Positions 32,924 through 56,642 of a DNA stretch of 64,000 nucleotides are shown piece after piece. A model generated the notes under the pieces. It was given only the letters and a program-made list of their open reading frames with translations, ran no database searches and was not told where the DNA came from. Source of the stretch: Urechis unicinctus (taxonomy: Eukaryota > Annelida > Polychaeta > Xenopneusta > Urechidae); NCBI GenBank assembly GCA_034190875.2, contig CM067348.1, positions 5,057,464 through 5,121,463 of the forward strand, read 5' to 3'. A program made the position numbers and the translations under genes. Position 1 is the first letter of the stretch, and each line of letters begins with the position of its first letter.

Positions 32924-32983
<60 letters not shown>

Positions 32984-35330: not shown

Positions 35331-35665
35331 ACATACGGTATCCACTAACTCTCCATGCTTTATAATATCATCTTATCTTACCAATGATAACAGAGAATTG
35401 TTTTCCAATCTCAAGTGCTTCTTATCCCACCAATCTGACACGAGCCCTTGAGACCTCATTCATTGGAAACCCTTGCCATTCAGTCCAGTTCTTCATCAGT
35501 ATTCTGTCAATAAGTCCCATGTTCCTTATTCAATGGAGAATCTCTGCAAACATCCTGCAGGGATGCTACCTGGCATGTGTTTGCCTTGGTTTGCCTGAGT
35601 TTGATTTATTGAATGTGTCTGAAGGTTAAGAATTCATGTGAATGCAGGTTGTTTTAAGGTTAGTA

Positions 35666-36522
35666 CAGTCGAGTATCCCTTATCCGGAATGGTCGGACCG
35701 GGCGTGTTCCGGATTTCGGAATATGCCTTTCCATACTCCCATTATCATGCATTCGTAGAAGCACAACCGTCAGTGTTAATCATAACGTTGCGGTTTTCCA
35801 AACGAACACCGCCTTGTCCACTTCTGACTTAACATTGTAAATATCGACTCGACGATAGAAATCGAAATAATTTTGTCCAAAAAAAGGGTACGTTAACAGT
35901 CGCAAGCGTACCTCAACGTTATTTCGTGATAGGGAATCTAAAGAAACAGTCAAAGCGACGTGATTGTGTGGGGATTAAATTCTAATTTAGACCCTATTTC
36001 GTCATTGTGGCATACATGCTTGGACACAGGCTAAAGACAATGTCAGCTGAGAATACGACCCGAGGTCCCTTCACTCTTTTCTAGATGTTCGATGTGAGGC
36101 ATATAATAGATCAACAGAACATCACTGATGATTATGCTAATTAGCGTATTATGGTCATTTTATTGGCAAGACACTTGCCCCTGGTCTTTTGATGATCTGA
36201 TGCCTCAGCACGTATATGAGAAATCTAAATTAGTAAACAGCGAGGACGCTGTCAGAGGCGAAGTTTCTTTGCCTTGGTCGTTTTACTGCCTGAATTAGAT
36301 GCGCACGGTTTCAGCATTAATGCTAATTTAAGAGACCCCCCATTGTCGGATGAGAAGGTGCGACTAATTTAAGCACCTTGATAACGGCCCCACAGCCATC
36401 CCACAGTCAATTAAACACGTAATCACCATCTTTACTGCAACGTCATAACGGTGCTTGCCCCAAAAATTCCGGATTTCGGAAGTTTCCGGATTCCGGAATT
36501 CCGGATAAGGGATATTCGACTG
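35666..36522. mobile_element. pogo/Tigger-like MITE, copy 1
   Basis: 857-bp element flanked by TA (35664-35665 and 36523-36524). Termini begin CAGTCGAGTATCCCTTATCC; the other end on the opposite strand reads CAGTCGAATATCCCTTATCC, continuing CGGAATTCCGGAATCCGG. TA duplication and CAGTNGA..CCTTATCCGGA ends are characteristic of the pogo/Tigger branch of Tc1/mariner. No transposase frame remains, so it is non-autonomous. The same insertion sits at the same place in each long block, so it predates the duplication. Confidence 0.85.
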
Positions 36523-36589
36523 TACACATGTCTGGAAGATACAGGGTGTAAATGTCATGAGCATTGAATCCCTAGGATTTTCCTGGCCA

Positions 36590-36905
36590 AGGTTCAAGAT
36601 ATCCATGTCAAACATGCAAATATCCATGACAACAATGGTCTTATCCATGACAACAATTGTTGTGTCCATGTCAATATTGGTTATGTCCATGTCTCAAATG
36701 CTGGTGCCCATGTCTTCCGTGGTTGTTTCCATGTCATCCATGGTTGTTTCCATGTCATCCATGGTTGTTTCCATGTCATCAATGGTTGTATTCATGTCAT
36801 CAATGGTTGTATTCATGTCATCAATCGTCACATCCATGCCAACATATCTTGTATTCATTACAACTTTTGTCATATTCATGTAAACAAAAGTTGTAACCAT
36901 GTCAA
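36590..36905. repeat. 21-bp minisatellite in intron 4, copy 1
   Basis: Units of GTCATCCATGGTTGTTTCCAT and relatives (TCCATGTCAT, TTCATGTCATCAATGG). Block copies 2 (45.86-46.14 kb) and 3 (54.86-55.14 kb) have fewer units of the GTATTCATGTCATCAATGG type. Met/Ser/Val-rich and Asp/Met/Thr-rich ORFs on the two strands are repeat shadows. Confidence 0.9.
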
Positions 36906-37788
36906 CAACAATAATAATATTCAGATCAAGCCATGTCAAACTGAAATTGTTTCCATGTCTACTACAGGCACAATTACTAGTCCATGGTATCACATTGTAT
37001 CTACAGCAGATTAATTATGTATATCACAATCACATCTCCCTGTCACGTGTGACATGCCCCCGTCTTAGTGCCCCATCTTCGTTCTGTTCCTACCAACAAC
37101 AGTCAGCAAGCACTGGGATCAGTCGGAAACAGGGACCATCTCAGAACTGAAATAACCTGACTTTATACCAAGTGTTACCATAGTGTTGCAATCCTCCTTG
37201 TGATTGCTTTACCATGTTTATCTGATAAGCCAGATAATTACCATGTAGGCTAGGATGTTAGCTTGATTAGCTATCTTCCCTGATATGCAGGCTGGCATGT
37301 GATTGAGGAAGGCAGGATGTGAACAAGTTCCTCATTCCTCTTTATCATCCTGCTTGAGTCTCACTCTTGACCAGCAGACTTGTCATTCATTATAAGAAAC
37401 AAGACCCTACAGGAATCGTCAGCATCTAGTCAAAAGAGATCTGTCTTAATTTGGCAGTTGCACGGAATTAAAATCTGTGGTGTGGAAGTGTAGTTTGGAT
37501 TATCCTCTCCATTTATCCTGTGTTTGAGTTGGTTCCCGTTGCAGTGTGGATTAAGGATGAGTGACTGTGAGGGGGTGTGGTGAAAAGTCTTCACATCTCC
37601 ATGGAGCAGGTTGTCAGGTCCATCACCGTCTGTTCAGCTGACATCCTGTGTGTAATCATTGTTTCCTCACCGTTTGTCTGTGTAAATCATGCTTCTCTTG
37701 TTAGATGTGAGGACAACCTTGTTTCCTGGAGACACCTCAGTATCTCTAAATCTAGTCTAATTATTAATCTATATATCGCTGTTTACAG

Positions 37789-38056
37789 CTTTTTGATTGG
37801 CCGAGAGAAGGACCCGTCCGAGAGTGAAGTGGCACGCCTCATCCAACAGTCCCTGGAACAGGACAAGAGGCGCAATGAGGTCCGTAAGCGCGAGCTGGAG
37901 GAGCGTCAGAGACAGCTGGAACAGCTGCAGTTGCAGGTTCAGCAGCAGAAGCAGATGCAGCAGGAGCGTCAGGCGATGGGGCAGACCCCCCAGCCCAGCA
38001 GTCCTCTGGAGGAGTCCGAATCAGATGACGATACCGAATATGTTTCTCCACATGAG
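37789..38056 (+). CDS. PPP1R9: Neurabin exon 5, copy 1: PDZ end and start of coiled coil
   Basis: Acceptor TTTACAG. Encodes FLIGREKDPSESEVARLIQQ, then a Glu/Arg/Gln-rich helix (SLEQDKRRNEVRKRELEERQ and following QLEQLQLQVQQQK) and an acidic tail ESDDDTEYVSPHE. VIGREK..SEVAQLI.Q.LEQ is the conserved neurabin sequence just after PDZ. 268 nt, incoming phase 2 and outgoing phase 0; donor GAG/GTAACC. Confidence 0.92.
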
Positions 38057-38163
38057 GTAACCATAGTAACAGCATCTCATTATTCACTGGTACAATTCAT
38101 CCGCACTAGAACGTGTAATGCTGTGAGTCAAGAGACTGATTTGTTTGCTGCAATGTTTTTCAG

Positions 38164-38310
38164 CATGAAGATACGGAGGAGAATCAGGTGGGTGACGAAG
38201 ATGAGCGTACAACAGCAGAGGTATTTCAGTTAGATGAGGGAAGCAGTGGAGAGTCAGGAGACGTGACTCCGGAGATGAACCCTCAAGTTCTCTTCATCAA
38301 ACTCAAAGAG
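38164..38310 (+). CDS. PPP1R9: Neurabin exon 6, copy 1: acidic linker
   Basis: 147 nt, 49 codons, phase 0 at both ends: HEDTEENQVGDEDERTTAEV, then FQLDEGSSGESGDVTPEMNP, then QVLFIKLKE. Corresponds to the acidic segment before the neurabin coiled coil (xxxEVFELxE.ED...). Acceptor TTTTTCAG; donor GAG/GTGCAG. Confidence 0.88.
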
Positions 38311-38409
38311 GTGCAGTCTCTCTGTTTAAATACTTTTTGGAAAAATGCATCCATAAATCTTGGTGGATATATCAAACCATAGTGTATAATGTTGATGGTA
38401 TGTCTTCAG

Positions 38410-38463
38410 GCGCAGTACAAAAACGCTGTGTCGGAAGCAGAATTAGCCAAACTCAAAGCCAAG
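38410..38463 (+). CDS. PPP1R9: Neurabin exon 7, copy 1: coiled coil
   Basis: 54 nt, 18 codons, phase 0 at both ends: AQYKNAVSEAELAKLKAK. Matches the neurabin pattern (FKEL..K.AV.EAEI.KLK.KL). Acceptor TCTTCAG; donor AAG/GTGAAA. Confidence 0.9.
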
Positions 38464-38600
38464 GTGAAATATCCTCCTTCATCTCAGAATCAATGTTTTC
38501 CTTTCTCACACGACAACCAGCATTCTAACGACGCATGGTTAAGTGACGACCTGTTTGTACTTAGTCATCCTACAGACTCTTCGTATTTCTGTGATTTCAG

Positions 38601-38729
38601 ATGATTCTGCTGGAGAATGCAGATTCCCAGAAGAAGGTATTTGAGAAGAAATATGAGGACATGGCATCTCGCCTGAGAGAGACTGAGAGGAACCTCACCA
38701 CGACCCAGAAGGAAATCACTAACTACCAG
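38601..38729 (+). CDS. PPP1R9: Neurabin exon 8, copy 1: coiled coil
   Basis: 129 nt, 43 codons, phase 0 at both ends: MILLENADSQKKVFEKKYED, then MASRLRETERNLTTTQKEIT, then NYQ; heptad-like. Acceptor GATTTCAG; donor CAG/GTGCCA. Confidence 0.9.
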
Positions 38730-38921
38730 GTGCCATGTTATTCCTATCTATTACATCATAAACTAGGTCCTATAAGTGTTGCACTCACAGATAACTAGAG
38801 GCTTTTGAATAACAAAGAAATTCCACCAATGAATTGGGGAGATTTCCCGGAGCCATTTTACTTTCCCTAGCTACAGGACCAGTTGCTTGTAGATTCTATT
38901 CCTTTGACTGTGTGCTGACAG

Positions 38922-39043
38922 GAGGTGCTCAAGGGCTCTCAGGAACACTATGTCAAACTGGAACAGGATATCCGCGATGAGTATACACAGCTGGAAAAGA
39001 AATACCACAAATCCAAGAAGCTCATCAAAGATTACCAAACCAG
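38922..39043 (+). CDS. PPP1R9: Neurabin exon 9, copy 1: coiled coil
   Basis: 122 nt, phase 0 to 2: EVLKGSQEHYVKLEQDIRDE, then YTQLEKKYHKSKKLIKDYQT-R. Matches the neurabin LEKKY.KAKKLIKD.Q block. Copy 1 has Ser (KSK) where block copy 2 and the last unit have Tyr (KYK). Confidence 0.92.
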
Positions 39044-39089
39044 GTGAGGCCTCCAATTAGTTGTCATGGATCCCAGGAGATGTATTTGA

Positions 39090-39215
39090 CTTGTGGCCAT
39101 TGAGGAATGATTGACAGCCTGCCATACCATGCTGGCAGCTGATTGACAGCCTGCCATACCGTGCTGCCAGCTGATTGAAAGCCTGCCATACCGTGCTGGC
39201 AGCTGATTGATTCTT
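39090..39215. repeat. 32-bp tandem repeat in intron 9, copy 1
   Basis: Units of TGATTGACAGCCTGCCATAC followed by CGTGCTGGCAGC. Three units here and in the last copy (62.17-62.28 kb), two in block copy 2 (47.80-47.88 kb). Confidence 0.9.
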
Positions 39216-39335
39216 TAGAAAATACTGGTTGATACTTAGTTAATGTTTTCTTTAACGTCTCCTCCGAGCAATTACTTTTACTACTGATGTACATGGTTGG
39301 GTGCGGAGGTGAGAAATGAGATTGTTGGTTTTCAG

Positions 39336-39432
39336 AGAGAGGGACTTATTACAAGAACAGGAGTCACAATACCAGCAACAGAGTGAGAAGGAACAGCAGT
39401 ACAACCAACTCGTTAAGTCACTCAAGGACAAG
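39336..39432 (+). CDS. PPP1R9: Neurabin exon 10, copy 1: coiled coil
   Basis: 97 nt: R-ERDLLQEQESQYQQQSEKEQ, then QYNQLVKSLKDK. Gln-rich helix; phase 2 in, 0 out; donor AAG/GTCAGC. Confidence 0.88.
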
Positions 39433-39546
39433 GTCAGCCACTCCTACCCTGTCATGTCTTCATTGTCAATGTATGCGCATATATTAACTAGTCTTCTGTT
39501 TGTTGGGGTTTTTTGAAATCTTATATAATCATGTTGACCTCTCCAG

Positions 39547-39742
39547 ATTTTCGACCTTGAGAAGCAGTTGACTGAGGCATTGAAGGCCAGTGGTCGAAGT
39601 GTCCCGCCCCCATATAGCCAGACAAAGATTGACATGGTGATGCTAGTTGCTGTAGCAACAAGCTATCAGAAGCCACGCCCCTTGGAAATTGACAACCTAT
39701 CAGAAGTTTCAGAAACAGACTCCTCCCCTGAAAACTCCCCTG
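39547..39742 (+). CDS. PPP1R9: Neurabin exon 11, copy 1: coiled-coil end and linker
   Basis: 196 nt: IFDLEKQLTEALKASGRSVP, then PPYSQTKIDMVMLVAVATSY, and an acidic Ser-rich tail ending SPENSPG. IxDLEK is the conserved neurabin end of the coiled coil. Phase 0 in, 1 out; donor CTG/GTAAAT. Identical sequence in block copy 2 and in the last unit. Confidence 0.88.
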
Positions 39743-39864
39743 GTAAATGCTGTTGATGTGTATCGCATTGAGTCGATTGTTCTCATATATTCATCTGGTG
39801 AGATAAATTACTGCTAGAATAGCGTTCAGAATATCTTAATGTTTGATTCTATTTATAATGACAG

Positions 39865-40081
39865 AGAAAGTGATAGCACATGGGAGGAACAGACATGTCA
39901 ATGGCACCCCCAGTGATACCTCGTACGGACAAGAAGTCCTGGATTGTGTTCCCCACACAGAACTTCTCCGATGTCTCTCCCAGTAAGAGATGTCTCTCCA
40001 TCAGTAAGAGCAAGACTCATCTTGCATCTGCCGGGGCCCTGGCTTAACAAAAGCCATTCGAGTAAAACCACCTCATCCACG
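39865..40081 (+). pseudogene. PPP1R9: Neurabin exon 12, copy 1, damaged
   Basis: Counterpart of the intact exon at 48530-48723 but 23 nt longer. It has an extra C near 39968, a partial internal duplication of TGTCTCTCC..CAGTAAGAG (39972-40012), and GGCTTAACAAAAGCC in place of the intact version's TTGCTGGACAAAAGCC. The frame is lost after about 34 codons. Splice sites are still present. Confidence 0.8.
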
Positions 40082-40124
40082 GTAAGTTAACAAAGAACAT
40101 GCGACCATTACAATTGTAAACATC

Positions 40125-40470
40125 CACTTGCAGTTAATCAACCACCCACAGTCAAATAAAACACGTATCCACCATCAGTTACACAGCCACCCACAGTCAA
40201 ATAAACACCTATCCACCATCAGTTACACAGCCACCCCCAGTCAATTAAACACCTATCCATCAGTTACCATCAGTTACACACCTATCCACCATCAGTTACC
40301 ATCCCATCAGTTACACAAATAAAACACCTACACACCCATCAGTTACACAGCCCACCCAATTAACACGTATCCACCATCAGTTACACAGCCACCCACAGTC
40401 AAATAAACACGTATCCACCATCAGTTACACACAGCCATCCCCAGTCAATATATCCAGGTCAGTTACACGT
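40125..40470. repeat. 44-bp VNTR in intron 12, copy 1
   Basis: Units of CCACCATCAGTTACACAGCC followed by ACCCACAGTCAAATAAACACGTAT. About seven or eight irregular units here, about fifteen in block copy 2 (48.77-49.43 kb) and about seven in the last copy (62.99-63.30 kb). Confidence 0.92.
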
Positions 40471-40572
40471 ATTTTTTCATCACCCATTAACTTGACCCTC
40501 TATGATGGGTCTAACGATGCACCCCGCATTGTACAGCTTTGTTCTACCTCACTTTGTTATGTCTGTTGACAG

Positions 40573-40605
40573 ACCTCGCACGAGTCTGATAAGATGATGA
40601 GTGGT
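40573..40605 (+). pseudogene. PPP1R9: Neurabin exon 13, copy 1, broken
   Basis: Begins like the intact 41-nt exon (TSHESD) but one A is missing. The exon end and donor are replaced by TGGTAACCTAGACAGTATCTAGCGAG, a stretch duplicated from further downstream in the intron (about 40788). Confidence 0.8.
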
Positions 40606-41045
40606 AACCTAGACAGTATCTAGCGAGTGACGAATTATCTGTTGCAGTGCTTCACTATTTATATATCTAACTCACTCTTGTGACCTTCACCCTTGTTGGA
40701 TCGTTTTTTGCTTGGTTGCGGTTACATTTGGAGTATACATTCTTTATCATATGCACCTCAGCGACTGTTGTCATGGTGATAGAGTGGTAACCTAGACAGT
40801 ATCTAGCGAGTGACGAATTATCTGTTGCAGTGCTCACTTACTAACGGCTTTGGGTTTTTTTTACATTTGGTTACTGTAGAAACGCCAGCATGTTCTGGTC
40901 TCTAGGTGCACAATAGCCAAATGTCATGTTAACGATAAAGGTCACATGCAAATGACATGACATCAATGGTGTGGGTTTCATTGTGGTGACCTTGCTGTGA
41001 CCTTTGTCCAGTCTTGTATCATCAGGCTTGTTGCTATGCTTCCAG

Positions 41046-41499
41046 TAACCTCTCTATTACTAATATGGGAGATGATGTCTTCCTCGGTCCCCCTCCTCTC
41101 CCCTCTTCCCCACCTCCCCACGAAGAACCAGACGCTCCTCAATCAACCGATGTTCACCTGGGATCCTCGGCACAAGACACAGGTGTCGTTGGAGATGACC
41201 ACTCGGATTTGGATGACTATGAGTTTGTTATTGGCGTGGACCCAAAAGATGTGCTGGCTAATCGAGCTCCGAAAGATGTGGCTACTGAAGATGTTATTGT
41301 ACTCTCTGAGGATACATATGTGGAAATCGAAGAAATTGAAACACAAGAAAATGTAACAAGGGCTGGATGACATTGATAGCAAACCAGGCGGGTGTTGTGT
41401 TGGAGATGAGAGTGTGGCAACATTGACAGCTGTAGGAAATGGTTCATTAGAAGGGATCGGAGACAGCAAGGATCAGTCTGATGATGACAGCCATGCAGG
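41046..41499 (+). CDS. PPP1R9: Neurabin exon 14, copy 1: Pro-rich and acidic segment
   Basis: Reads NLSITNMGDDVFLGPPPLPS, then SPPPHEEPDAPQSTDVHLGS and a long acidic stretch (SDLDDYEFVIGVDPKDVL; VIVLSEDTYVEIEEIE). An extra base at AACAAGGGCTGG (about 41360) shifts the frame; block copy 2 lacks it but has its own one-base loss in the later TGTTGTGTTG(G)AGATGAG. The two copies together imply that an intact exon exists. 454 nt here. Donor CAGG/GTAAGT. Confidence 0.75.
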
Positions 41500-42324
41500 G
41501 TAAGTGGAAGTGGACGGATGATGTGTGTGGCAGCTCTCCGCATGCTCAGGGCAGCTAAGAGATGATGCCATCAGAGATAGGTTGGGTTCATTTCAGGTTC
41601 AGTATTATGCCAATTGCAAAGTATTTGATCAGCTACTGTACTGCGCATAGAACTTTTCCCACATAGTGTGATCGTAATCAACACATACACCCATTGCAGC
41701 CTTACTTGCGTGCTCCATATTAACCCAACAATATATGACAGTTTGCCAAGCTATGCTAACAGTTAGATTACAGCAATTATTACATTTTTTGAATAATATT
41801 CCAATGCAAATTAGCAGTCTTCGATTGCTTTCTCCCATATGGAGTCTGTTGTGGTTTGGCAATCTTCAAATGCTCAAGTTTATTTGTTCATTGCTTCCTC
41901 ATTTTGTTTTAGGGGATGTTTACCCAGTCCATTGCATAATGTAGGGTTTGTTTATAACCGCATGGTTATAGTAATGTGGTTATGGTTATAGCAGTAATAG
42001 GTGGTTATTAAATTTCAGCTCGTTTATTTCAATTAATGATAGAGGTTTTTAATCATAAACAGTTAAATCGACTAAGCCATACCCAATTTATAAATGCTTA
42101 TTTTGACATTCTTATTAACATGTTTTTAGTGAATCAGAAGAATTAATAATTCGACCACAGTACTGTACAATTCTAACTGCATCCTCTTAAGTATCTTTGA
42201 CTCATTTAATTTTTGTACCTCATATGATAATAGCAATTGGTTCCGTATGATAGTCAGCAATTTGCATATGCTAACCCCTATTTGCATATTCTAATATTTG
42301 TCATCACTATTCTATTTCGATTAG

Positions 42325-42507
42325 GGATGACTAATCAGACACCTCCAGTATATCCCAATCATCGTACGACCCATCGCAGCCAATGTTCCCGTCAATGGGG
42401 GCAGAAATCCCCCACGTATCGCCTGATACACAGGAAGGTGGTGTCATGCTGATATCCTCACAACCGCGGCAGGATCACTCTTCCATGGTTACGTTTGACT
42501 TCCACAA
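42325..42507 (+). pseudogene. PPP1R9: Neurabin exon 15, copy 1, with TAA
   Basis: Same as 51332-51514 except for a CAA-to-TAA change at 42332-42334. Otherwise SDTSSISQSSYDPSQPMFPS, MGAEIPHVSPDTQEGGVMLI, SSQPRQDHSSMVTFDFHK. The exon either ends at CACAA/GTGATA or the protein stops at the adjacent TGA. Phase with exon 16 does not fit, so an exon may be missing in between. Confidence 0.65.
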
Positions 42508-42759
42508 GTGATATGGGCTTCTCTTTGGGTGATCATGGTTCTTCCATTTCAATCTACGTGACATAGCTTGGGTGTAGTTTGGGGATAGCTTTTACAGCTT
42601 TTCATACAGATTGCAAAGTTTTGAATGATTCATATAGATTGGAATTGTTGCAATATGTGTAATTTGTGTTAGAGTTTGCATCATGGTGTGGCACCTGCCT
42701 CTTATACAAGTTGTCATGTCTGCATAAAGAAGACCTCATGCAAGATAGGCTTCTCCACA

Positions 42760-42935
42760 AGCATAACATGTTCAGTGAAGCTTACAAGCATAACATATTC
42801 AGTGAAGCTTACAAGCATATCATGTTCAGTGTAGCTTACAAGTATACCATGTTCAGTGTAGCTTACAAGCATAACATGTTCAGTGTAGCTTACAAGCATA
42901 ACATATTCAGTGTAGCTTACAAGCATATCATTCAC
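42760..42935. repeat. 27-bp minisatellite, copy 1
   Basis: Seven units of AGCTTACAAGCATAACATGT followed by TCAGTGT, repeated at 51.77-51.94 kb in block copy 2. The period is a multiple of three, so ORFs are open on both strands (42666-42959 plus, 42714-42968 minus); not genes. Confidence 0.92.
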
Positions 42936-43604
42936 AAGGTCTACTTCCATATTCCTTGATGACAACATATGTGACGATAAAGTGTTGACAACTTATATAA
43001 AACTTGGAGTCCAAATCTTGCAAGAGGTCATTTTTGCTAGCTACGGTGGACGGTTTTACTTACATAAGACTTAAATTATGCACCTTTATGAGTTCCGCAC
43101 TCTTATATTCTACCTAAAAACTTGCACTTGATACTAACTGTGTCTGTGAGACTAGTGTCTGATACTTATCCAATAGCAGTGTGATAGTCCTCTGCTTTCT
43201 GACTCAATTTATTATTTCAGTTCTTCAGTGCATTTGTACTAGTTGTGTTTTTTGCCAAGCTGATGCTGCTAAACCTAGACGGGGCTGCATATATCTATAT
43301 ATCACAGCCAGGTTTCACCTGACATGCTGCCATCATCAGTTGGCAAAGTCGCGTTAATATAATCACCAACGCCCTAAGATATATTCATATAATAAACAGT
43401 GATTGTAAACCTCAGTTGAATTCCCAGTCACAAACAACCAGTGAACAAATAATCCATTAACCGTATTTCTGCCATCCACGACCCATATTCCTCACCAGTG
43501 TATACGCTGATGCAGCAGGGAATTTACTGGCTCGAAGTCTAGTTCTTGTACTACTCAAGTAACATTCCCTGCCCATCCATTGGCAGAAACACATGCGTCT
43601 CACG

Positions 43605-43880
43605 ATGTAGAAGCCCCCCCCCCCCATTGACTTCCCACCCAGCAACAAACACCTCCCATAATATAGAAGCCCCTCCCACTTACTTCCCTCCCAGCAATGA
43701 ACCCCTCCCATAATGTAGAACCCCTGCCATTGACTTCCCACCCGGCAACAAACCCCTTCCATAACTTAGAACCCCCCCCCCCCCTATTGACTAACCATCC
43801 AGTGACAAACCACTCTTATCATGCCCCATCCATGGAACTCTCCTCCTCTCCCTGCAACCCCCCCCCCCCCCCCATTCGTC
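43605..43880. repeat. 50-55-bp C-rich minisatellite before exon 16, copy 1
   Basis: Four units of the type GAACCCCTCCCATTGACTTC followed by CCACCCAGCAACAAACCCCTCCCATAATGTA, with C-runs of varying length, ending in a poly-C run before the exon 16 acceptor. Copy 2 has the same at 52.61-52.87 kb with different C-run lengths. Confidence 0.85.
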
Positions 43881-43903
43881 TCCCACCCTCTCCACCCTAT
43901 GAG

Positions 43904-44131
43904 TGGAGAAGCAAGTACTAAGTGGAGTGTATGCCGGTGCAGCACCCAATGCAGCCGGTCAACCCAAGGCGCTCATTTCCGGGAAGGCAAGCAAAGCTGG
44001 CGGAATCCAGTTAATCTCCAAGAAGCCTGTGCCCAATGACTTTAGTGCTGACTCTGGTGGCATAGCTCTGCTCTCGACCAGATCACTGGATACTGGATAT
44101 GGTCGGGGCCACTTAAACACACACAGTACAG
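43904..44131 (+). CDS. PPP1R9: Neurabin exon 16, copy 1 (provisional)
   Basis: After a C-rich pyrimidine tract and CTATGAG the frame reads EKQVLSGVYAGAAPNAAGQP, then KALISGKASKAGGIQLISKK, then PVPNDFSADSGGIALLSTRS and LDTGYGRGHLNTHST, ending at ACAG/GTAGGT. Composition and splice sites look coding, and the counterpart in block copy 2 differs by few bases. I recognise no domain; membership in the neurabin gene follows from position and strand. Confidence 0.6.
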
Positions 44132-44926
44132 GTAGGTACTCAACAGGCTCTTAATGGATGCAACCCATACATCATATTATGGTTCTTGTATACAGTGATG
44201 GTTCTTTTATCGTAACATCCTTGGAGCAGAACTATCCTGCTTGCCTGGGGGTTTCACCCAAGCTAGCATGAAGAAGCATGATACTTTATACATCTACTGC
44301 GCTTCATGCTTCCTTGTTGGGTCATGCTTCTAATGCTAAATATAGTAAGAGTTGGTGCTGAAGGGCTATCTTAAAACTCAGTCTCAAGTGACACACACAA
44401 AACTCTGACCATTAAGCTGGTAGGTTAACAATACTTGTAGTTTGCTTGGCTATTTTCTGAGTATTGTGCGGTTTCTTGAGACAATGTTCTTCCATGCGGG
44501 GGAATCTGCTGCTGTGTCCCTTAATGATAAATCATTATGAATCCGTAAACCAGCATGTTTGTACCATTTGCCTGGCTATATTGCCTCACATATTAATATC
44601 AACTCATGGTTTATTATGGTGTACACACAAGCTTCTTCCATATAAGTTTATTTCTCTTATACAGCCATTTCTGATTTTCCTTTTCTGCTTACTCGGTACT
44701 TACATGTTCAAGCTATTTGTTTTCTTTGCTTTCATATTCAACTTTTGTTTGTCTAATTTCTCTTCTTTGACTAAATTCACTCGGTAATCTAGGTTGTGTG
44801 TGTTTGATGTGATATCTGTGGAGATTCTCAATGGGTTTGGGTAGCTTTGGTTATTTCACGATTCAGTGTCCAAACAATGAATCATCTACTCAACTCATGT
44901 GAATGCAGGTTGTTTTAAGGTTAGTA

Positions 44927-45783: not shown

Positions 45784-46550
45784 TACACATGTCTGGAGAT
45801 ACAGGGTGTAAATGTCATGAGCGGTTGAATCCCTAGGATGGTTTCCTGGCCAAGGTTCAAGATATCCATGTCAAACATGCAAATATCCATGACAACAATG
45901 GTCTTATCCATGACAACAATTGTTGTGTCCATGTCAATATTGGTTATGTCCATGTCTCAAATGCTGGTGCCCATGTCTTCCGTGGTTGTTTCCATGTCAT
46001 CCATGGTTGTTTCCATGTCATCCATGGTTGTTTCCATGTCATCAATGGTTGTATTCATGTCATCAATCGTCACATCCCATGCCAACATATCTTGTATTCA
46101 TTACAACTTTTGTCATATTCATGTAAACAAAAGTTGTAACCATGTCAACAACAATAATAATATTCAGATCAAGCCATGTCAAACTGAAATTGTTTCCATG
46201 TCTACTACAGGCACAATTACTAGTCCATGGTATCACATTGTATCTACAGCAGATTAATTATGTATATCACAATCACATCTCCCTGTCACGTGTGACATGC
46301 CCCCGTCTTAGTGCCCCATCTTCGTTCTGTTCCTACCAACAACAGTCAGCAAGCACTGGGATCAGTCGGAAACAGGGACCATCTCAGAACTGAAATAACC
46401 TGACTTTATACCAAGTGTTACCATAGTGTTGCAATCCTCCTTGTGATTGCTTTACCATGTTTATCTGATAAGCCAGATAATTACCATGTAGGCTAGGATG
46501 TTAGCTTGATTAGCTGTCTTCCCTGATATGCAGGCTGGCATGTGATTGAG

Positions 46551-47740
46551 GGAACAGGACAAGAGGCGCAATGAGCTCCGTAAGCGCGAGCTGGAGGAGC
46601 GTCAGAGACAGCTGGAGCAGCTGCAGTTGCGGTTCAGCAGCAGGCAGATGCAGCAGGAGCGTCAGGCGATGGGGCAGACCCCCCAGCCCAGCAGTCCTCT
46701 GGAGGAGTCCGAATCAGATGACGATACCGAATATGTTTCTCCACATGAGGTAACCATAGTAACAGCATCTCATTATTCACTGGTACAATTCATCCGCACT
46801 AGAACGTGTAATGCTGTGAGTCAAGAGACTGATTTGTTTGCTGCAATGTTTTTCAGCATGAAGATACGGAGGAGAATCAGGTGGGTGACGAAGATGAGCG
46901 TACAACAGCAGAGGTATTTCAGTTAGATGAGGGAAGCAGTGGAGAGTCAGGAGACGTGACTCCGGAGATGAACCCTCAAGTTCTCTTCATCAAACTCAAA
47001 GAGGTGCAGTCTCTCTGTTTAAATACTTTTTGGAAAAAATGCATCCATAAATCTTGGTGGATATATCAAACCATAGTGTATAATGTTGATGGTATGTCTT
47101 CAGGCGCAGTACAAAAACGCTGTGTGTCGGAAGCAGAATTAGCCAAACTCAAAGCCAAGGTGAAATATCCTCCTTCATCTCAGAATCAATGTTTTCCTTT
47201 CTCACACGACAACCAGCATTCTAACGACGCATGGTTAAGTGACGACCTGTTTGTACTTAGTCATCCTACAGACTCTTCGTATTTCTGTGATTTCAGATGA
47301 TTCTGCTGGAGAATGCAGATTCCCAGAAGAAGGTATTTGAGAAGAAATATGAGGACATGGCATCTCGCCTGAGAGAGACTGAGAGGAACCTCACCACGAC
47401 CCAGAAGGAAATCACTAACTACCCAGGTGCCATGTTATTCCTATCTATTACATCATAAACTAGGTCCTATAAGTGTTGCACTCACAGATAACTAGAGGCT
47501 TTTGAATAACAAAGAAATTCCACCAATGAATTGGGGAGATTTCCCGGAGCCATTTTACTTTCCCTAGCTACAGGACCAGTTGCTTGTAGATTCTATTCCT
47601 TTGACTGTGTGCTGACAGGAGGTGCTCAAGGGCTCTCAGGAACACTATGTCAAACTGGAACAGGATATCCGCGATGAGTATACACAGCTGGAAAAGAAAT
47701 ACCACAAATACAAGAAGCTCATCAAAGATTACCAAACCAG
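46551..47740 (+). pseudogene. PPP1R9: Neurabin exons 5 (partial) to 9, block copy 2
   Basis: Exon 5 remnant 46551-46749 (no acceptor, no PDZ end; starts at EQDKRRNE; two small deletions near 46630 and 46644 compensate in frame). Exon 6 46857-47003 intact. Exon 7 47104-47159 carries an extra TG (56 instead of 54 nt). Exon 8 47297-47426 has an extra C before the donor. Exon 9 47619-47740 intact. Without an exon 5 acceptor this copy could only be used by splicing into exon 6. Confidence 0.85.
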
Positions 47741-48000
47741 GTGAGGCCTCCAATTAGTTGTCATGGATCCCAGGAGATGTATTTGACTTGTGGCCATTGA
47801 GGAATGATTGACAGCCTGCCATACCATGCTGGCAGCTGATTGACAGCCTGCCATACCGTGCTGGCAGCTGATTGATTCTGTAGAAAATACTTGTTGATAC
47901 TTAGTTAATGTTTTCTTTAACGTCTCCTCCGAGCAATTACTTTTACTACTGATGTACATGGTTGGGTGCGAAGGTGAGAAATGAGATTGTTGGCTTTCAG

Positions 48001-48723
48001 AGAGAGGGACTTATTACAAGAACAGGAGTCACAATACCAGCAACAGAGTGAGAAGGAACAGCAGTACAACCAACTCGTTAAGTCACTCAAGGACAAGGTC
48101 AGCCACTCCTACCCTGTCATGTCTTCATTGTCAATGTATGCGCATATATTAACTAGTCTTCTGTTTGTTGGGGTTTTTTGAAATCTTATATAATCATGTT
48201 GACCTCTCCAGATTTTCGACCTTGAGAAGCAGTTGACTGAGGCATTGAAGGCCAGTGGTCGAAGTGTCCCGCCCCCATATAGCCAGACAAAGATTGACAT
48301 GGTGATGCTAGTTGCTGTAGCAACAAGCTATCAGAAGCCACGCCCCTTGGAAATTGACAACCTATCAGAAGTTTCAGAAACAGACTCCTCCCCTGAAAAC
48401 TCCCCTGGTAAATGCTGTTGATGTGTATCGCATTGAGTCGATTGTTCTCATATATTCATCTGGTGAGATAAATTACTGCTAGAATAGCGTTCAGAATATC
48501 TTAATGTTTGATTCTATTTATAATGACAGAGAAAGTGATAGCACATGGGAGGAACAGACATGTCAATGGCACCCCCAGTGATACCTCGTACGGACAAGAA
48601 GTCCTGGATTGTGTTCCCCACACAGAACTTCTCGATGTCTCTCCCAGTAAGAGCAAGACTCATCTTGCATCTGCCGGGGCCCTTGCTGGACAAAAGCCTC
48701 CGAGTAAAACCACCTCATCCACG
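48001..48723 (+). CDS. PPP1R9: Neurabin exons 10-12, block copy 2, intact
   Basis: Exon 10 48001-48097, exon 11 48212-48407, exon 12 48530-48723, all with good splice sites and matching phases (2-0, 0-1, 1-0). Exon 12 reads EKVIAHGRNRHVNGTPSDTS, then YGQEVLDCVPHTELLDVSPS, then KSKTHLASAGALAGQKPPSK. This is the best version of exon 12 in the window and shows that copy 1 and the last copy are damaged. Confidence 0.88.
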
Positions 48724-49543
48724 GTAAGTTAACAAAGAACATGCGACCATTACAATTGTAAACATTCACTTGCAGTTAATCAACCACCCACAGTCAAATA
48801 AACGCGTATCCACCATCAGTTACACAGCCACCCACAGTCAATTAAACACGTATCCACCATCAGTTACACAGCAACCCACAGTCAATTAAACACCTATCCA
48901 CCATCAGTTACACAGCCATCCCCAGTCAAATAAACACCTATCCACCATCAGTTACACAGCCACCCACAGTCAAATAAACACGTATCCACCATCAGTTACA
49001 CAGCCATCCCCAGTCAATTAAACACGTATCCACCATCAGTTACACAGCCATCCCCAGTCAATTAAACACCTATCCACCATCAGTTACACAGCCACTCACA
49101 GTCAAATAAACACCTATCCACCATCAGTTACACAGCCATCCCCAGTCAATTAAACACCTATCCACCATCAGTTACACAGCCACCCACAATCAATTAAACA
49201 CGTATCCACCATCAGTTACACAGCCATCCCACAGTCAATTAAACACGTATCCACCATCAGTTACACAGCCACCCACAATCAATTAAACACGTATCCACCA
49301 TCAGTTACACAGCCACCCACAGTCAAATAAACACGTATCCACCATCAGTTACACAGCCATCCCCAGTCAAATAAACACCTATCCACCATCAGTTACACAG
49401 CCATCCCCATTCAATTAATCAACCACACACAACCACACTTTTTTCCTCATCAGTCCATTAACTTGACCCTCTATGATGGGTCTAACGATGCACCCAGCAT
49501 TGTACAGCTTTGTTCTACCTCATTTTGTTATGTCTGTTGACAG

Positions 49544-50504
49544 ACCTCGCACGAGTCTGATGAAGATGATGAGCTGTATGACGGGTGACGACCCCCTAAC
49601 TGGCTTGGCCTTCTATTTATATATCTCTCTCTCTCTCTCACTCACTACTCACTCTTGTGACCTTCACCCTTGTTGGATCGACTTAAACATGTATTGCTTG
49701 GTTGCGGTGAAGTTAATTTCTTACCTTTGGAGTATAGAGTTGCATTCTTTATCATATGCACCTCAGCGACTGTTGTCATGGTGATAGAGTGGTAACCTAG
49801 ACAGTATCTAGCGAGTGACGAATTATCTGTTGCAGTGCTTCACTTACTAACGGCTTTGGGTTTTTTTACATTTGGTTACTGTAGAAACGCCCAGCATGTT
49901 CTGGTCTCTAGGTGCACAATAGCCAAATGTCACATGTTAACGATAAAGGTCACATGCAAATGACATGACATCAATGGTGTGGGTTTCATTGTGGTGACCT
50001 TGCTGTGACCTTTGTCCAGTCTTGTATCATCAGGCTTGTTGCTATGCTTCCAGTAACCTCTCTATTACTAATATGGGAGATGATGTCTTCCTCGGTCCCC
50101 CTCCTCTCCCCTCTTCCCCACTCCCCACGAAGAACCAGACGCTCCTCAATCAACCGATGTTCATCTGGGATCCTCGGCACAAGACACAGGTGTCGTTGGA
50201 GATGACCACTCGGATTTGGATGACTATGAGTTTGTTATTGGCGTGGACCCAAAAGATGTGCTGGCTAATCGAGCTCCGAAAGATGTGGCTACTGAAGATG
50301 TTATTGTACTCTCTGAGGATACATATGTGGAAATCGAAGAAATTGAAACACAAGAAAATGTAACAAGGCTGGATGACATTGATAGCAAACCAGGCGGGTG
50401 TTGTGTTGAGATGAGAGTGTGGCAACATTGACAGCTGTAGGAAATGGTTCATTAGAAGGGATCGGAGACAGCAAGGATCAGTCTGATGATGACAGCCATG
50501 CAGG
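49544..50504 (+). CDS. PPP1R9: Neurabin exons 13-14, block copy 2
   Basis: Exon 13 49544-49584 (41 nt: TSHESDEDDELYDG, phase 0 to 2). Exon 14 50054-50504 begins with the completing T (G-NLSITNMGDDVFLG). In exon 14 the copy-1 insertion at AACAAGG is absent and the frame continues LDDIDSKPGGCCV. A missing C in CTCTTCCCCACTCCCC and a missing G in TGTTGTGTTGAG each shift the frame. Confidence 0.78.
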
Positions 50505-51331
50505 GTAAGTGGAAGCGGACGGATGATGTGTGTGGCAGCTCTCCGCATGCTCAGGGCAGCTAAGAGATGATGCCATCAGAGATAGGTTGGGTTCATTTCA
50601 GGTTCAGTATTATGCCAATTGCAAAGTATTTGATCAGCTACTGTACTGCGCATAGAACTTTTTCCACATAGTGTGATCGTAATCAACACATACACCCATT
50701 GCAGCCTTACTTGCGTGCTCCATACTAACCCAACAATATATGACAGTTTGCCAAGCTATGCTAACAGTTAGATTACAGCAATTATTACATTTTTTGAATA
50801 ATATTCCAATGCAAATTAGCAGTCTTCGATTGCTTTCTCCCATATGGAGTCTGTTGTGGTTTGGCAATCTTCAAATGCTCAAGTTTATTTGTTCATTGCT
50901 TCCTCATTTTGTTTTAGGGGATGTTTACCCAGTCCATTGCATAATGTAGGGTTTGTTTATAACCGCATGGTTATAGTAATGTGGTTATGGTTATAGCAGT
51001 AATAGGTGGTTATTAAATTTCAGCTCGTTTATTTCAATTAATGATAGAGGTTTTTAATCATAAACATTTAAATCGACTAAGCCATACCCAATTTATACAC
51101 ATGCTTATTTTGACATTCTTATTAACATGTTTTTAGTGAATCAGAAGAATTAATAATTCGACCACAGTACTGTACAATTCTAACTGCATCCTCTTAAGTA
51201 TCTTTGACTCATTTAATTTTTGTACCTCATATGATAATAGCAATTGGTTCCGTATGATAGTCAGCAATTTGCATATGCTAACCCCTATTTGCATATTCTA
51301 ATATTTGTCATCACTATTCTATTTCGATTAG

Positions 51332-51514
51332 GGATGACCAATCAGACACCTCCAGTATATCCCAATCATCGTACGACCCATCGCAGCCAATGTTCCCGTC
51401 AATGGGGGCAGAAATCCCCCACGTATCGCCTGATACACAGGAAGGCGGTGTCATGCTGATATCCTCACAACCGCAGCAGGATCACTCTTCCATGGTTACG
51501 TTTGACTTCCACAA
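51332..51514 (+). CDS. PPP1R9: Neurabin exon 15, block copy 2, open
   Basis: GDDQSDTSSISQSSYDPSQP, then MFPSMGAEIPHVSPDTQEGG, then VMLISSQPQQDHSSMVTFDF-HK. The Gln codon CAA stands where copy 1 has TAA. Followed by GTGATA (possible donor), or by the in-frame TGA. Confidence 0.72.
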
Positions 51515-52903
51515 GTGATATGGGCTTCTCTTTGGGTGATCATGGTTCTTCCATTTCAATCTACGTGACATAGCTTGGGTGTAGTTTGGGGATAGCTTTT
51601 ACAGCTTTTTATACAGATTGCAAAGTTTTGAATGATTCATATAGATTGGAATTGTTGCAATATGTGTAATTTGTGTTAGAGTTTGCATCATGGTGTGGCA
51701 CCTGCCTCTTATACAAGTTGTCATGTCTGCATAAAGAAGACCTCATGCAAGATAGGCTTCTCCACAAGCATAACATGTTCAGTGAAGCTTACAAGCATAA
51801 CATATTCAGTGAAGCTTACAAGCATATCATGTTCAGTGTAGCTTACAAGTATACCATGTTCAGTGTAGCTTACAAGCATAACATGTTCAGTGTAGCTTAC
51901 AAGCATAACATATTCAGTGTAGCTTACAAGCATATCATTCACAAGGTCTACTTCCATATTCCTTGATGACAACATATGTGACGATAAAGTGTTAACAACT
52001 TACATAAAACTTGGAGTCCAAATCTTGCAAGAGGTCATTTTTGCTAGCTACGGTGGACGGTTTTACTTACATAAGACTTAAATTATGCACCTTTATGAGT
52101 TCTGCACTCTTATATTCTACCTACAAACTTGCACTTGATACTAACTGTGTCTGTGAGACTAGTGTCTGATACTTATCCAATAGCAGTGTGATGGTCCTCT
52201 GCTTTCTGACTCAATTTATTATTTCAGTTCTTCAGTGCATTTGTACTAGTTGTGTTTTGCCAAGCTGATGCTGCTAAACCTAGACGGGGCTGCATATATC
52301 TATATATCACAGCCAGGTTTCACCTGACATGCTGCCATCATCAGTTGGCAAAGTCGCGTTAATATAATCACCAACGCCCTAAGATATATTCATATAATAA
52401 ACAGTGATTGTAAACCTCAGTTCAATTCCCAGTCACAAACAACCAGTGAACAAATAATCCATTAACCGTATTTCTGCCATCCACGACCCATATTCCTCAC
52501 CAGTGTATACGCTGATGCAGCAGGGAATTTACTGGCTCGAAGTCTAGTTCTTGTACTACTCAAGTAACATTCCCTGCCCATCCATTGGCAGAAACACATG
52601 CGTCTCACAATGTAGAAGCCCCCCCCCATTGACTTCCCACCCAGCAACAAACACCTCCCATAATACAGAAGCCCCTCCCACTTACTTCCCTCCCAGCAAT
52701 GAACCCCTCCCATAATGTAGAACCCCTGCCATTGACTTCCAACTCGGCAACAAACCCTTTCCATAACGTAGAACCCCCCCCTTTTGACTAACCATCCAGT
52801 GACAAACCCCTCTTATCATGCCCCATCCATGGAACTCTCCTCCTCTCCCTGCAACCCCCCCCCCCCGCCCCCCATTCGTCTCCCACCCTCTCCACCCTAT
52901 GAG

Positions 52904-53131
52904 TGGAGAAGCAAGTACTAAGTGGAGTGTATGCCGGTGCAGCACCCAATGCAGCCGGTCAACCCAAGGCGCTCATTTCCGGGAAGGCAAGCAAAGCTGG
53001 TGGAATCCAGTTAATCTCCAAGAAGCCTGTGCCCAATGACTTTAGTGCTGACTCTGGTGGCATAGCTCTGCTCTCGACCAGATCACTGGATACTGGATAT
53101 GGTCGGGGCCACTTAAACACACACAGTACAG
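52904..53131 (+). CDS. PPP1R9: Neurabin exon 16, block copy 2 (provisional)
   Basis: Same length and frame as 43904-44131 with only a few base differences (for example GGC/GGT in a Gly codon), again after a C-rich tract and before ACAG/GTAGGT. Confidence 0.6.
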
Positions 53132-53896
53132 GTAGGTACTCAACAGGCTCTTAATGGATGCAACCCATACATCATATTATGGTTCTTGTATACAGTGATG
53201 TTCTTTTATCGTAACATCCTTGGAGCAGAACTATCCTGCTTGCCTGGGGGTTTCACCCAAGCTAGCATGAAGAAGCATGATACTTTATACATCTACTGCG
53301 CTTCATGCTTCCTTGTTGGGTCATGCTTCTAATGCTAAATATAGTAAGAGTTGGTGCTGAAGGGCTATCTTAAAACTCAGTCTCAAGTGACACACACAAA
53401 ACTCTGACCATTAAGCTGGTAGGTTAACAATACTTGTAGTTTGCTTGGCTATTTTCTGAGTATTGTGCGGTTTCTTGAGACAATGTTCTTCCATGCGGGG
53501 GAATCTGCTGCTGTGTCCCTTAATGATAAATCATTATGAATCCGTAAACCAGCATGTTTGTACCATTTGCCTGGCTATATTGCCTCACATATTAATATCA
53601 ACTCATGGTTTATTATGGTGTACACACAAGCTTCTTCCATATAAGTTTATTTCTCTTATACAGCCATTTCTGATTTTCCTTTTCTGCTTACTCGGTACTT
53701 ACATGTTCAAGCTATTTGTTTTTTTCTTTGCTTTCATATTCAACTTTTGTTTGTCTAATTTCTCTTCTTTGACTAAATTCACTCGGTAATCTAGGTTGTG
53801 TGTGTTTGATGTGATATCTGTGGAGATTCTCAATGGGTTTGGGTAGCTTTGGTTATTTCACGATTCAGTGTCCAAACAATGAATCATCTACTCAAC

Positions 53897-56642
53897 TCAT
53901 GTGAATGCAGGTTGTTTTAAGGTTAGTACAGTCGAGTATCCCTTATCCGGAATGGTCGGACCGGGCGTGTTCCGGATTTCGGAATATGCCTTTCCATACT
54001 CCCATTATCATGCATTCGTAGAAGCACAACCGTCAGTGTTAATCATAACGTTGCGGTTTTCCAAACGAACACCGCCTTGTCCACTTCTGACTTAACATTG
54101 TAAATATCGACTCGACGATAGAAATCGAATAATTTTGTCCAAAAAAAAGGGTACGTTAACAGTCGCAAGCGTACCTCAACGTTATTTCGTGATGGGGAAT
54201 CTAAAGAAACAGTCAAAGCGACGTGATTGTGTGGGGATTAAATTCTAATTTAGACCCTATTTCGTCATTGTGGCATACATGCTTGGACACAGGCTAAAGA
54301 CAATGTCAGCTGAGAATACGACCCAAGGTCCCGTCACTCTTTTCTAGATGTTCGATGTGAGGCATATAATAGATCAACAGAACATCACTGATGATTATGC
54401 TAATTAGCGTATTATGGTCATTTTATTGGCAAGACACTTGCCCCTGGTCTTTTGATGATCTGATGCCTCAGCACGTATATGAGAAATCTAAATTAGTAAA
54501 CAGCGCGGACGCTGTCAGAGGCGAAGTTTCTTTGCCTTGGTCGTTTTACTGCCTGAATTAGAGGCGCACGGTTTCAGCATTAATGCTAATTTAAGAGACC
54601 CCCCATTGTCGGATGAGAAGGTGCGACTAATTTAAGCACCTTGATAACGGCCCCACAGCCATCCCACAGTCAATTAAACACGTAATCACCATCTTTACTG
54701 CAACGTCATAACGGTGCTTGCCCCAAAAATTCCGGATTTCGGAAGTTTCCGGATTCCGGAATTCCGGATAAGGGATATTCGACTGTACACATGTCTGGAG
54801 ATACAGGGTGTAAATGTCATGAGCGGTTGAATCCCTAGGATGGTTTCCTGGCCAAGGTTCAAGATATCCATGTCAAACATGCAAATATCCATGACAACAA
54901 TGGTCTTATCCATGACAACAATTGTTGTGTCCATGTCAATATTGGTTATGTCCATGTCTCAAATGCTGGTGCCCATGTCTTCCGTGGTTGTTTCCATGTC
55001 ATCCATGGTTGTTTCCATGTCATCCATGGTTGTTTCCATGTCATCAATGGTTGTATTCATGTCATCAATCGTCACATCCATGCCAACATATCTTGTATTC
55101 ATTACAACTTTTGTCATATTCATGTAAACAAAAGTTGTAACCATGTCAACAACAATAATAATATTCAGATCAAGCCATGTCAAACTGAAATTGTTTCCAT
55201 GTCTACTACAGGCACAATTACTAGTCCATGGTATCACATTGTATCTACAGCAGATTAATTATGTATATCACAATCACATCTCCCTGTCACGTGTGACATG
55301 CCCCCGTCTTAGTGCCCCATCTTCGTTCTGTTCCTACCAACAACAGTCAGCAAGCACTGGGATCAGTCGGAAACAGGGACCATCTCAGAACTGAAATAAC
55401 CTGACTTTATACCAAGTGTTACCATAGTGTTGCAATCCTCCTTGTGATTGCTTTACCATGTTTATCTGATAAGCCAGATAATTACCATGTAGGCTAGGAT
55501 GTTAGCTTGATTAGCTGTCTTCCCTGATATGCAGGCTGGCATGTGATTGAGGGAACAGGACAAGAGGCGCAATGAGCTCCGTAAGCGCGAGCTGGAGGAG
55601 CGTCAGAGACAGCTGGAGCAGCTGCAGTTGCAGGTTCAGCAGCAGAAGCAGATGCAGCAGGAGCGTCAGGCGATGGGGCAGACCCCCCAGCCCAGCAGTC
55701 CTCTGGAGGAGTCCGAATCAGATGACGATACCGAATATGTTTCTCCACATGAGGTAACCATAGTAACAGCATCTCATTATTCACTGGTACAATTCATCCG
55801 CACTAGAACGTGTAATGCTGTGAGTCAAGAGACTGATTTGTTTGCTGCAATGTTTTTCAGCATGAAGATACGGAGGAGAATCAGGTGGGTGACGAAGATG
55901 AGCGTACAACAGCAGAGGTATTTCAGTTAGATGAGGGAAGCAGTGGAGAGTCAGGAGACGTGACTCCGGAGATGAACCCTCAAGTTCTCTTCATCAAACT
56001 CAAAGAGGTGCAGTCTCTCTGTTTAAATACTTTTTTGGAAAAATGCATCCATAAATCTTGGTGGATATATCAAACCATAGTGTATAATGTTGATGGTATG
56101 TCTTCAGGCGCAGTACAAAAAACGCTGTGTCGGAAGCAGAATTAGCCAAACTCAAAGCCAAGGTGAAATATCCTCCTTCATCTCAGAATCAATGTTTTCC
56201 TTTCTCACACGACAACCAGCATTCTAACGACGCATGGTTAAGTGACGACCTGTTTGTACTTAGTCATCCTACAGACTCTTCGTATTTCTGTGATTTCAGA
56301 TGATTCTGCTGGAGAATGCAGATTCCCAGAAGAAGGTATTTGAGAAGAAATATGAGGACATGGCATCTCGCCTGAGAGAGACTGAGAGGAACCTCACCAC
56401 GACCCAGAAGGAAATCACTAACTACCAGGTGCCATGTTATTCCTATCTATTACATCATAAACTAGGTCCTATAAGTGTTGCACTCACAGATAACTAGAGG
56501 CTTTTGAATAACAAAGAAATTCCACCAATGAATTGGGGAGATTTCCCGGAGCCATTTTACTTTCCCTAGCTACAGGACCAGTTGCTTGTAGATTCTATTC
56601 CTTTGACTGTGTGCTGACAGGAGGTGCTCAATCAGGAACACT
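53897..56642 (+). repeat. Tandem block copy 3, broken off in exon 9
   Basis: Begins as the other blocks do, carries the same MITE (53929-54785) and the same exon 5 front deletion as copy 2 (junction near 55551). It ends inside exon 9, where sequence jumps back to the middle of intron 4. Confidence 0.92.
53929..54785. mobile_element. pogo/Tigger-like MITE, copy 3
   Basis: Third copy of the same insertion (857 bp, TA-flanked), matching copy 2 more closely than copy 1, for example AGCGCGGACGC against AGCGAGGACGC. Confidence 0.85.

What the first reader, a model, noticed from the sequence alone, without database searches (positions are those of the whole stretch)
35634..56642. 9-kb intragenic tandem amplification of neurabin exons 5-16
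The block TCATGTGAATGCAGG...CTACTCAAC recurs at 35634, 44895 and 53897 with introns, MITE and minisatellites included, so it was copied as DNA and not by retroposition. A neurabin gene with repeated coiled-coil and C-terminal exons is, to my knowledge, not a described arrangement. Near-identity of introns means the event is very recent, or technical.
Basis: seen in the sequence. Interest (0 to 1): 0.75.

Follow-up and report, generated by a model that had tools for sequence, protein, structure and literature searches.

The report
Partly duplicated, non-coding neurabin gene tail
The back half of a nerve-cell scaffold gene (neurabin) is repeated in this animal genome assembly, but the repeats are broken and out of reading frame and sit at the edge of an assembly gap, so they look like a damaged or partly mis-assembled stretch and not a new kind of protein.

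Summary
The block starts at 35634, 44895 and 53897 are exactly there. Only two copies are full 9-kb blocks (A1, A2); the third (A3) stops after 2.75 kb and passes into a 2-kb sub-repeat, which runs on towards 64000, where a 7,963-N run begins. A1 and A2 differ by 36 isolated substitutions in 7,677 bp. Copies A2, A3, b, c show no isolated substitution in any of 6 pairs but 35 one- or two-base indels, an error signature, so copy number is unreliable. A contig 95 kb on carries one block with open exons, then SAM exons not found elsewhere in the assembly except as weak matches. After the N run lies an inverted, 95-99% copy of the gene's 5' part. The array cannot lengthen neurabin: phases clash, exons are cut or frameshifted, and the second PDZ exon has an in-frame TAG. 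Best reading: a real but non-functional partial tandem duplication on one haplotype, in a duplication-rich region, inflated and scrambled by assembly. A wholly technical origin is the main rival; reads would decide.

The parts
32647..32786 (+). neurabin exon with PP1-binding-type stretch (SRIQFSQQPIK; motif name recalled)
   Evidence: splice sites and frame; PF17817 1.2e-29 for this exon with the next; PDB neurabin/spinophilin
33592..33724 (+). neurabin exon ([44 protein letters not shown])
33984..34104 (+). first PDZ exon; the inverted copy after the N run holds only its first 44 bases
34500..34604 (+). second PDZ exon with in-frame TAG at 34516-34518 where PDB neurabin-1 has Q; only copy found in the assembly
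35634..44894 (+). block copy A1 (full, about 9.26 kb); exon X8 frameshifted, 40453-40726 unlike all other copies
36933..38960 (+). 2-kb sub-unit (exons X1-X4 and first 39 bases of X5), bounded by a direct repeat with 11 bp identical across the junction
37309..37854 (+). segment missing from A2 and A3 (547 bp in alignment), includes acceptor and 5' part of exon X1; a 688-bp deletion from about 37301 is in copy b
44895..53896 (+). block copy A2 (full apart from the 547-bp deletion); X1 truncated, X3, X4 and X9 frameshifted
53897..56642 (+). block copy A3, partial; X1 truncated, X3 frameshifted, ends inside X5
56643..57971 (+). sub-unit copy b (688-bp deletion; keeps only the last part of X1)
57972..59996 (+). 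sub-unit copy c; X2 and X3 frameshifted by one base each
59997..62985 (+). copy d: A1-like to 38960-equivalent, mostly A2-like after 39013-equivalent
62986..64000 (+). tail t, up to the edge of the 7,963-N run; close to A2 and to the single-copy contig
19707..34027 (+). 5' part of the gene that is present again, inverted and 95-99% identical, right after the N run (71964-86697 in window coordinates); that copy lacks about 32598-33654, with one whole exon and part of the next

Best explanation
A single neurabin locus lies here. On the haplotype carried by the window's contig, the 3' half of the gene (without the SAM exons) underwent a partial tandem duplication: a 9.26-kb unit joined end to start without homology, then further local rearrangement (a 2-kb unit duplicated between 11-bp direct repeats, and two deletions), as expected of end joining or template switching during replication. 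The duplication is not functional: phases do not match at the repeat junctions and the copies are cut or frameshifted. The other contig (130519 onward) shows the unduplicated state of the 3' half, with open exons. Copy number beyond two is unreliable: copies A3, b and c are substitution-free repeats of the A2 sequence that differ by small indels, at the end of a contig, in a scaffold that also holds redundant, inverted and out-of-order copies of the locus. Shown: the layout, the junctions, the divergence figures, the broken frames and the flanks found once. Inferred: that it is on one haplotype, that the first junction exists in the animal, and the mechanism.
For: Identical 9-kb junction found twice, with 0 bp homology; 2-kb junction found three times, with 11 bp homology. 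The unrearranged sequence on both sides of the block exists on the 130519 contig. A1, A2 and that contig's copy (B) are three distinct sequences: 36/7677 (A1-A2), 88/8227 (A1-B) and 87/7653 (A2-B) isolated substitutions, so more than the two alleles that one diploid can have at a single-copy locus. A2, A3, b, c: 0 isolated substitutions in 6 of 6 pairs, 35 small indels, against 88 and 18 for A1-B; the two pairs without shared members alone give 0:13, Fisher p 2.6e-9. B has no stop in the 8 exons for which stops were scored and no indel in any of the 10 exons. Strong matches to the second PDZ exon lie only on the window's contig, strong matches to the SAM exons only on the 130519 contig. N runs at 64001-71963, 87500-87599 and 130419-130518. 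Older segmental duplications in both orientations surround the locus on C7 between 4.8 and 5.9 Mb, so real local duplication is plausible.
Against: No reads, depth or second assembly were available. The same three-sequence pattern would arise without any duplication if DNA of several animals was pooled. The inverted 5' copy is about as far from the window (77/12145, 0.63%) as A2 is from A1 (0.47%), while B is farther (1.07%; left flank 18/917), so assigning the inverted piece and B to one second haplotype is not secure. The inverted copy itself lacks one exon and part of the next, so no complete second copy of the gene's 5' half is shown. The contig ends in the array, where errors are likely.
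Confidence: 0.5

Rival explanations
1. Wholly technical: alleles and error-rich versions of one single-copy block were strung together at a contig end (heterotype plus homotype false duplication); no tandem copy exists in the animal.
For: Contig end and N run at 64000; inverted redundant 5' piece and a separate single-copy contig in the same scaffold, separated by N runs; zero isolated substitutions but 35 small indels among four copies; the inverted piece has an irregular join of its own that drops an exon. Gaps between copies, and copies made by sequencing errors, often at contig boundaries, are described as marks of false duplication in PMC9516828 and PMC8081667 (passages read); PMC9516828 describes false gene and exon gains, among them 9 of 11 coding exons of ZBTB11.
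Against: Needs several chimaeric joins (9-kb, 2-kb and two deletions) that lie in no long homology; A1-A2 differ by substitutions, not only by errors; A1, A2 and B are three sequences.
Confidence: 0.37
2. A real, larger complex rearrangement on one chromosome: tandem copies followed by a true inverted copy of the 5' half (fold-back type), in the order in which the scaffold shows it.
For: Inverted 5' copy (0.63%) and A2 (0.47%) are about equally far from their partners, as if of one age; inverted segmental duplications of about 86-95% identity occur nearby in N-free fetched stretches.
Against: The pieces are separated by N runs; the inverted piece and the 130519 contig end 630 bp apart in gene coordinates (34027 and 34657), as two contigs of one allele might; scaffold orientation of a 15-kb piece is weak evidence.
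Confidence: 0.1
3. A working neurabin gene with repeated coiled-coil and C-terminal exons making a longer protein.
For: In A1 nine of the ten traced exons, and in d its seven exons X1-X7, carry no indel.
Against: X11 ends in phase 1 but X1 needs phase 2 and X2 phase 0; X4 ends in phase 0 before X1; X1 or X5 is truncated in four copies (A2, A3, b, c); frameshifts in A1, A2, A3, c; TAG in the second PDZ exon upstream; SAM exons outside the block.
Confidence: 0.03

Closest known systems
[quoted passage not shown] passages read)
   Same: Redundant alleles in one scaffold separated by N runs; copies that differ by error-like indels near a contig end; partial exon sets duplicated.
   Different: Substitution-level divergence between A1 and A2 and three distinct sequences; junctions without long homology. 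Depth and k-mers, the deciding criteria, were not available.
Intragenic partial tandem and complex duplications by replication-based repair, e.g. dystrophin (PMC4303224, abstract read) and PAFAH1B1 (PMC4628255, search listing only)
   Same: Non-recurrent copy of several exons, junctions with no or short microhomology, more than one breakpoint.
   Different: Here an unnamed animal, no clinical or read evidence, several nested partial copies, and an uncertain assembly.
Neurabin/spinophilin family (PDB 9gsu, 3hvq, 3egg; Pfam PF17817, PF00595, PF07647)
   Same: PP1-binding/PDZ region, coiled-coil-like exons and C-terminal SAM domain in order.
   Different: The copy in the window has a stop in the second PDZ exon, and no SAM exon was found on its contig.

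Membership tests
False duplication (assembly artefact) | N runs between duplicated copies on one scaffold | tested here: met
   64001-71963, 87500-87599, 130419-130518. Not met inside the window's array itself, which has no N. The cause of the 7,963-N run (sized gap or withheld stretch) is unknown.
False duplication (assembly artefact) | Copies differ by sequencing-error-like changes only | tested here: inconclusive
   Met for A2, A3, b, c (0 isolated substitutions, 35 small indels over 6 pairs); not met for A1-A2 (36 in 7677).
False duplication (assembly artefact) | Half or lower read depth, discordant reads, k-mer copy number | not testable with these tools
   no reads available
Real partial intragenic tandem duplication | Defined head-to-tail junction with the unrearranged state known | tested here: met
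   44894/44895 and 53896/53897 identical; unrearranged flanks on the 130519 contig
Real partial intragenic tandem duplication | More distinct copies than a diploid single-copy locus allows | tested here: inconclusive
   Three distinct sequences A1, A2, B, but a pooled sample cannot be excluded.
Real partial intragenic tandem duplication | Junction present in reads or PCR | not testable with these tools
   no reads, no sample
Neurabin gene | PP1-binding region, PDZ, coiled coil, SAM in order | tested here: met
   spread over two contigs of the scaffold. The coiled coil is judged from sequence and by recall of the family; no coiled-coil program was run.
Neurabin gene | Open reading frame through the PDZ domain in the window's copy | tested here: not met
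   TAG at 34516-34518

The most novel reading that the evidence does not exclude
In a local hotspot of direct and inverted segmental duplication on this chromosome, one haplotype carries a genuine multi-step rearrangement of the neurabin gene (tandem 9-kb copies, nested 2-kb copies and a fold-back inverted 5' copy), segregating as a null copy-number variant with an allele whose 3' half is intact.
Probability: 0.12. Interest if true: 0.4.

Novelty: new member of a known kind. Interest (0 to 1): 0.2.

Why it matters
As drawn, the locus could be annotated as a strange multi-copy neurabin. The evidence says that such a gene model would be wrong. If the core duplication is real, it is an ordinary kind of non-recurrent partial duplication, of local interest because it lies in a region rich in older inverted and direct duplications.

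Tried and rejected
Extended functional neurabin: rejected on phases, truncated and frameshifted exons and the PDZ stop. Retroposition: rejected, since introns are copied. Recombination between long repeats as cause of the 9-kb junction: no homology at the break (0 bp); the high-copy element begins about 30 bp inside the block, not at the junction. A second complete neurabin gene: not found; strong matches to the second PDZ exon only in the window, to the SAM exons only on the 130519 contig, and the inverted copy lacks an exon. The contig 87600-130418 as the other allele's 5' part: its 67-87% matches belong at least partly to a local low-copy repeat family and it held none of the four 5' exons tested, so it was dropped from the argument. 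Literature: 'neurabin' with 'exon duplication' gave one paper, which I did not open; a six-term neurabin search gave none. These two searches do not show that the arrangement is unpublished. Organism not identified.
Full report
What is there. The window is C7:5057464-5121463 of an unnamed 1.19-Gb genome in 926 contigs. The stated 15-mer occurs at 35634, 44895 and 53897, and nowhere else on the plus strand of the window. Self-alignment resolves the stretch as follows: A1 35634-44894; A2 44895-53896, lacking 547 bp (about 37309-37854 of A1); A3 53897-56642, with the same deletion, breaking off inside an exon; then three further copies of a 2-kb sub-unit (36933-38960 of A1): b at 56643 (with a 688-bp deletion), c at 57972, d at 59997. 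Copy d runs on past the sub-unit into a tail that reaches 64000. There a run of 7,963 N begins in the genome record itself. Whether that is a sized gap or a withheld stretch I cannot tell; another N run of exactly 2,500 was seen on C13.

Which gene. The exons at 32647-34604 match PDB neurabin-1 and spinophilin chains (best 9gsu, E 2.6e-62) and Pfam PDZ_5 and PDZ. In the block I traced ten coding exons, X1-X9 and X11, mostly of coiled-coil type by eye; acceptors of X9 and X11 were not fixed. X10 was not confirmed. The SAM domain and last coil exons lie beyond the block, at window-equivalent 143.6-144.3 kb.

Surroundings. Sixteen 10-kb stretches of the same scaffold (2 upstream, 14 downstream) show N runs at 64001-71963, 87500-87599 and 130419-130518. 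The piece 71964-86697 is an inverted copy of window 34027-19707. Six alignments were kept (over 350 columns and above 95%): 12,145 aligned bases, 234 mismatches, 77 of them isolated; four further rows, at 87-90% and around 22.1-22.8 kb, were dropped as internal repeats. The copy lacks three stretches of the window, the last being about 32598-33654; with it goes the exon 32647-32786 and the first 63 bases of the next. The contig from 130519 (its block copy is called B) begins at the equivalent of 34657, holds one copy of the block, and goes on into other sequence with the SAM exons. Searches of the whole assembly with the protein found the second PDZ exon strongly only in the window; the first 44 bases of the first PDZ exon are also in the inverted copy, and there is one weak 38% match on C9. 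The SAM exons were found strongly only after B, with three weak matches of 30-40% on other chromosomes. The block's 3' part has 3 full-length matches. The stretch 38200-39800 has 4 near-full and 3 partial copies, plus two short weak matches on C10.

Divergence. I counted isolated substitutions (no gap within 5 columns, no other mismatch within 6) and indels of 1-2 bases, over five aligned segments; the minisatellites and the stretch 40453-40726, where A1 is unlike all other copies, were left out. A1-A2: 36 in 7677, 20 indels. A1-B: 88 in 8227, 18 indels. A2-B: 87 in 7653, 16 indels. Among A2, A3, b and c: 0 isolated substitutions in all 6 pairs, 35 indels. Unfiltered mismatches do exist in these pairs (up to 8 in the 2-kb unit, A2-A3; 12 in segment I); they are clustered or next to gaps. 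The two pairs without shared members (A2-A3 and b-c) give 0 substitutions and 13 indels, against 88 and 18 for A1-B, Fisher p 2.6e-9. So A2, A3, b and c look like one sequence plus consensus errors. Against a simple error picture: only part of the private small indels lie in homopolymers (for the four copies alone, 7 of 11). A1 is a different sequence, and B a third. Copy d is A1-like up to 38960-equivalent and mostly A2-like afterwards. Not all differences fit simple classes: d and the tail share some letters with B, and tail-specific letters lie near the contig end.

Junctions. The 9-kb junction has 0 bp homology. The 2-kb junction has 11 bp, within a direct repeat of 14 positions (13 alike). 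The two deletions have 0 bp. The 9-kb junction occurs twice, the 2-kb junction three times and the 547-bp deletion twice, each time the same at the join. A loop in an assembly graph would repeat a real junction in just this way; so would real amplification.

Coding. The donor of X11 leaves phase 1, X1 needs phase 2 and X2 phase 0; X4 leaves phase 0 and would meet X1 again in the sub-repeat. In the exon table (10 exons, 7 copies, with details), A1 has net frameshifting indels in X8; A2 lacks the first 66 bases of X1, is frameshifted in X3 and X9 and has a one-base insertion near the end of X4; A3 lacks the start of X1, is shifted in X3 and lacks X5 onward; b scored as lacking X1 (it keeps about the last 68 bases) and X5 onward; c has one-base insertions in X2 and X3 and lacks X5 onward; d with its tail lacks X8 and onward as scored (the tail reaches only the first part of X9). 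B had no indel in any of the 10 exons. Against this, some of the small indels may be consensus errors. The second PDZ exon of the window has TAG at 34516-34518 where neurabin-1 has Q; no other copy of that exon was found for comparison.

Region. The DNA of 12200-13600 matched only C7 between 4.8 and 5.9 Mb, in both orientations, at 67-99% (30 matches, itself included, 20 of 20 candidates scored). Two fetched stretches show long inverted and direct relatives at 69-95%, and 7245-12096 has a 4,985-bp inverted partner at 89.8% upstream in the same scaffold. Most of these are too divergent to be alleles, so local duplication seems a real habit of this region. That raises the odds of a real event and also those of mis-assembly.

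Weighing. For a real core duplication: substitution divergence between A1 and A2, three distinct sequences, non-homologous junctions, known unrearranged state. For a technical origin: contig end, N runs, inverted redundant piece with a lost exon, separate single-copy contig, error-only copies. The published marks of false duplication that can be tested without reads are partly met (PMC9516828 and PMC8081667, passages read); the deciding ones need reads. I put 0.5 on a real, non-coding partial duplication with inflated copy number, 0.37 on a wholly technical origin, 0.1 on a larger real rearrangement that includes the inverted piece, and 0.03 on a working extended neurabin. One point that I could not settle: the inverted piece is 0.63% from the window but B is 1.07% (about 2% at its left flank), so they may not be one haplotype.

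Noticed in passing
window 7245-18769 and C7:4.8-5.9 Mb: A low-copy repeat family found only within about 1 Mb of C7, in both orientations, 67-99% identical; for example 7245-12096 against -27388..-32277 inverted at 89.8%. Ten open frames from the window (nine of them between 6145 and 18893) gave no Pfam match above a curated cut-off.
   Followed up: partly
window 34516-34518: In-frame TAG in the only assembled copy of neurabin's second PDZ exon: a null allele or a consensus error.
   Followed up: partly
window 29637-31723: Transposon-like stretch with a 458-aa minus-strand open frame (looks like a LINE reverse transcriptase, recalled, no family search run), present at the same place in the inverted 5' copy. 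A query from it had 75 matches on many chromosomes, 40 of 227 candidates scored.
   Followed up: partly
window-equivalent 138685-140749, 177052-186333 and 193679-200075: Long tandem arrays downstream, including a strongly expanded minisatellite inside the block copy B that is short in A1 and A2.
   Followed up: no
C13:45134258-45136757 (L035): N run of exactly 2,500 bases, unlike the 100-base runs near the window.
   Followed up: no
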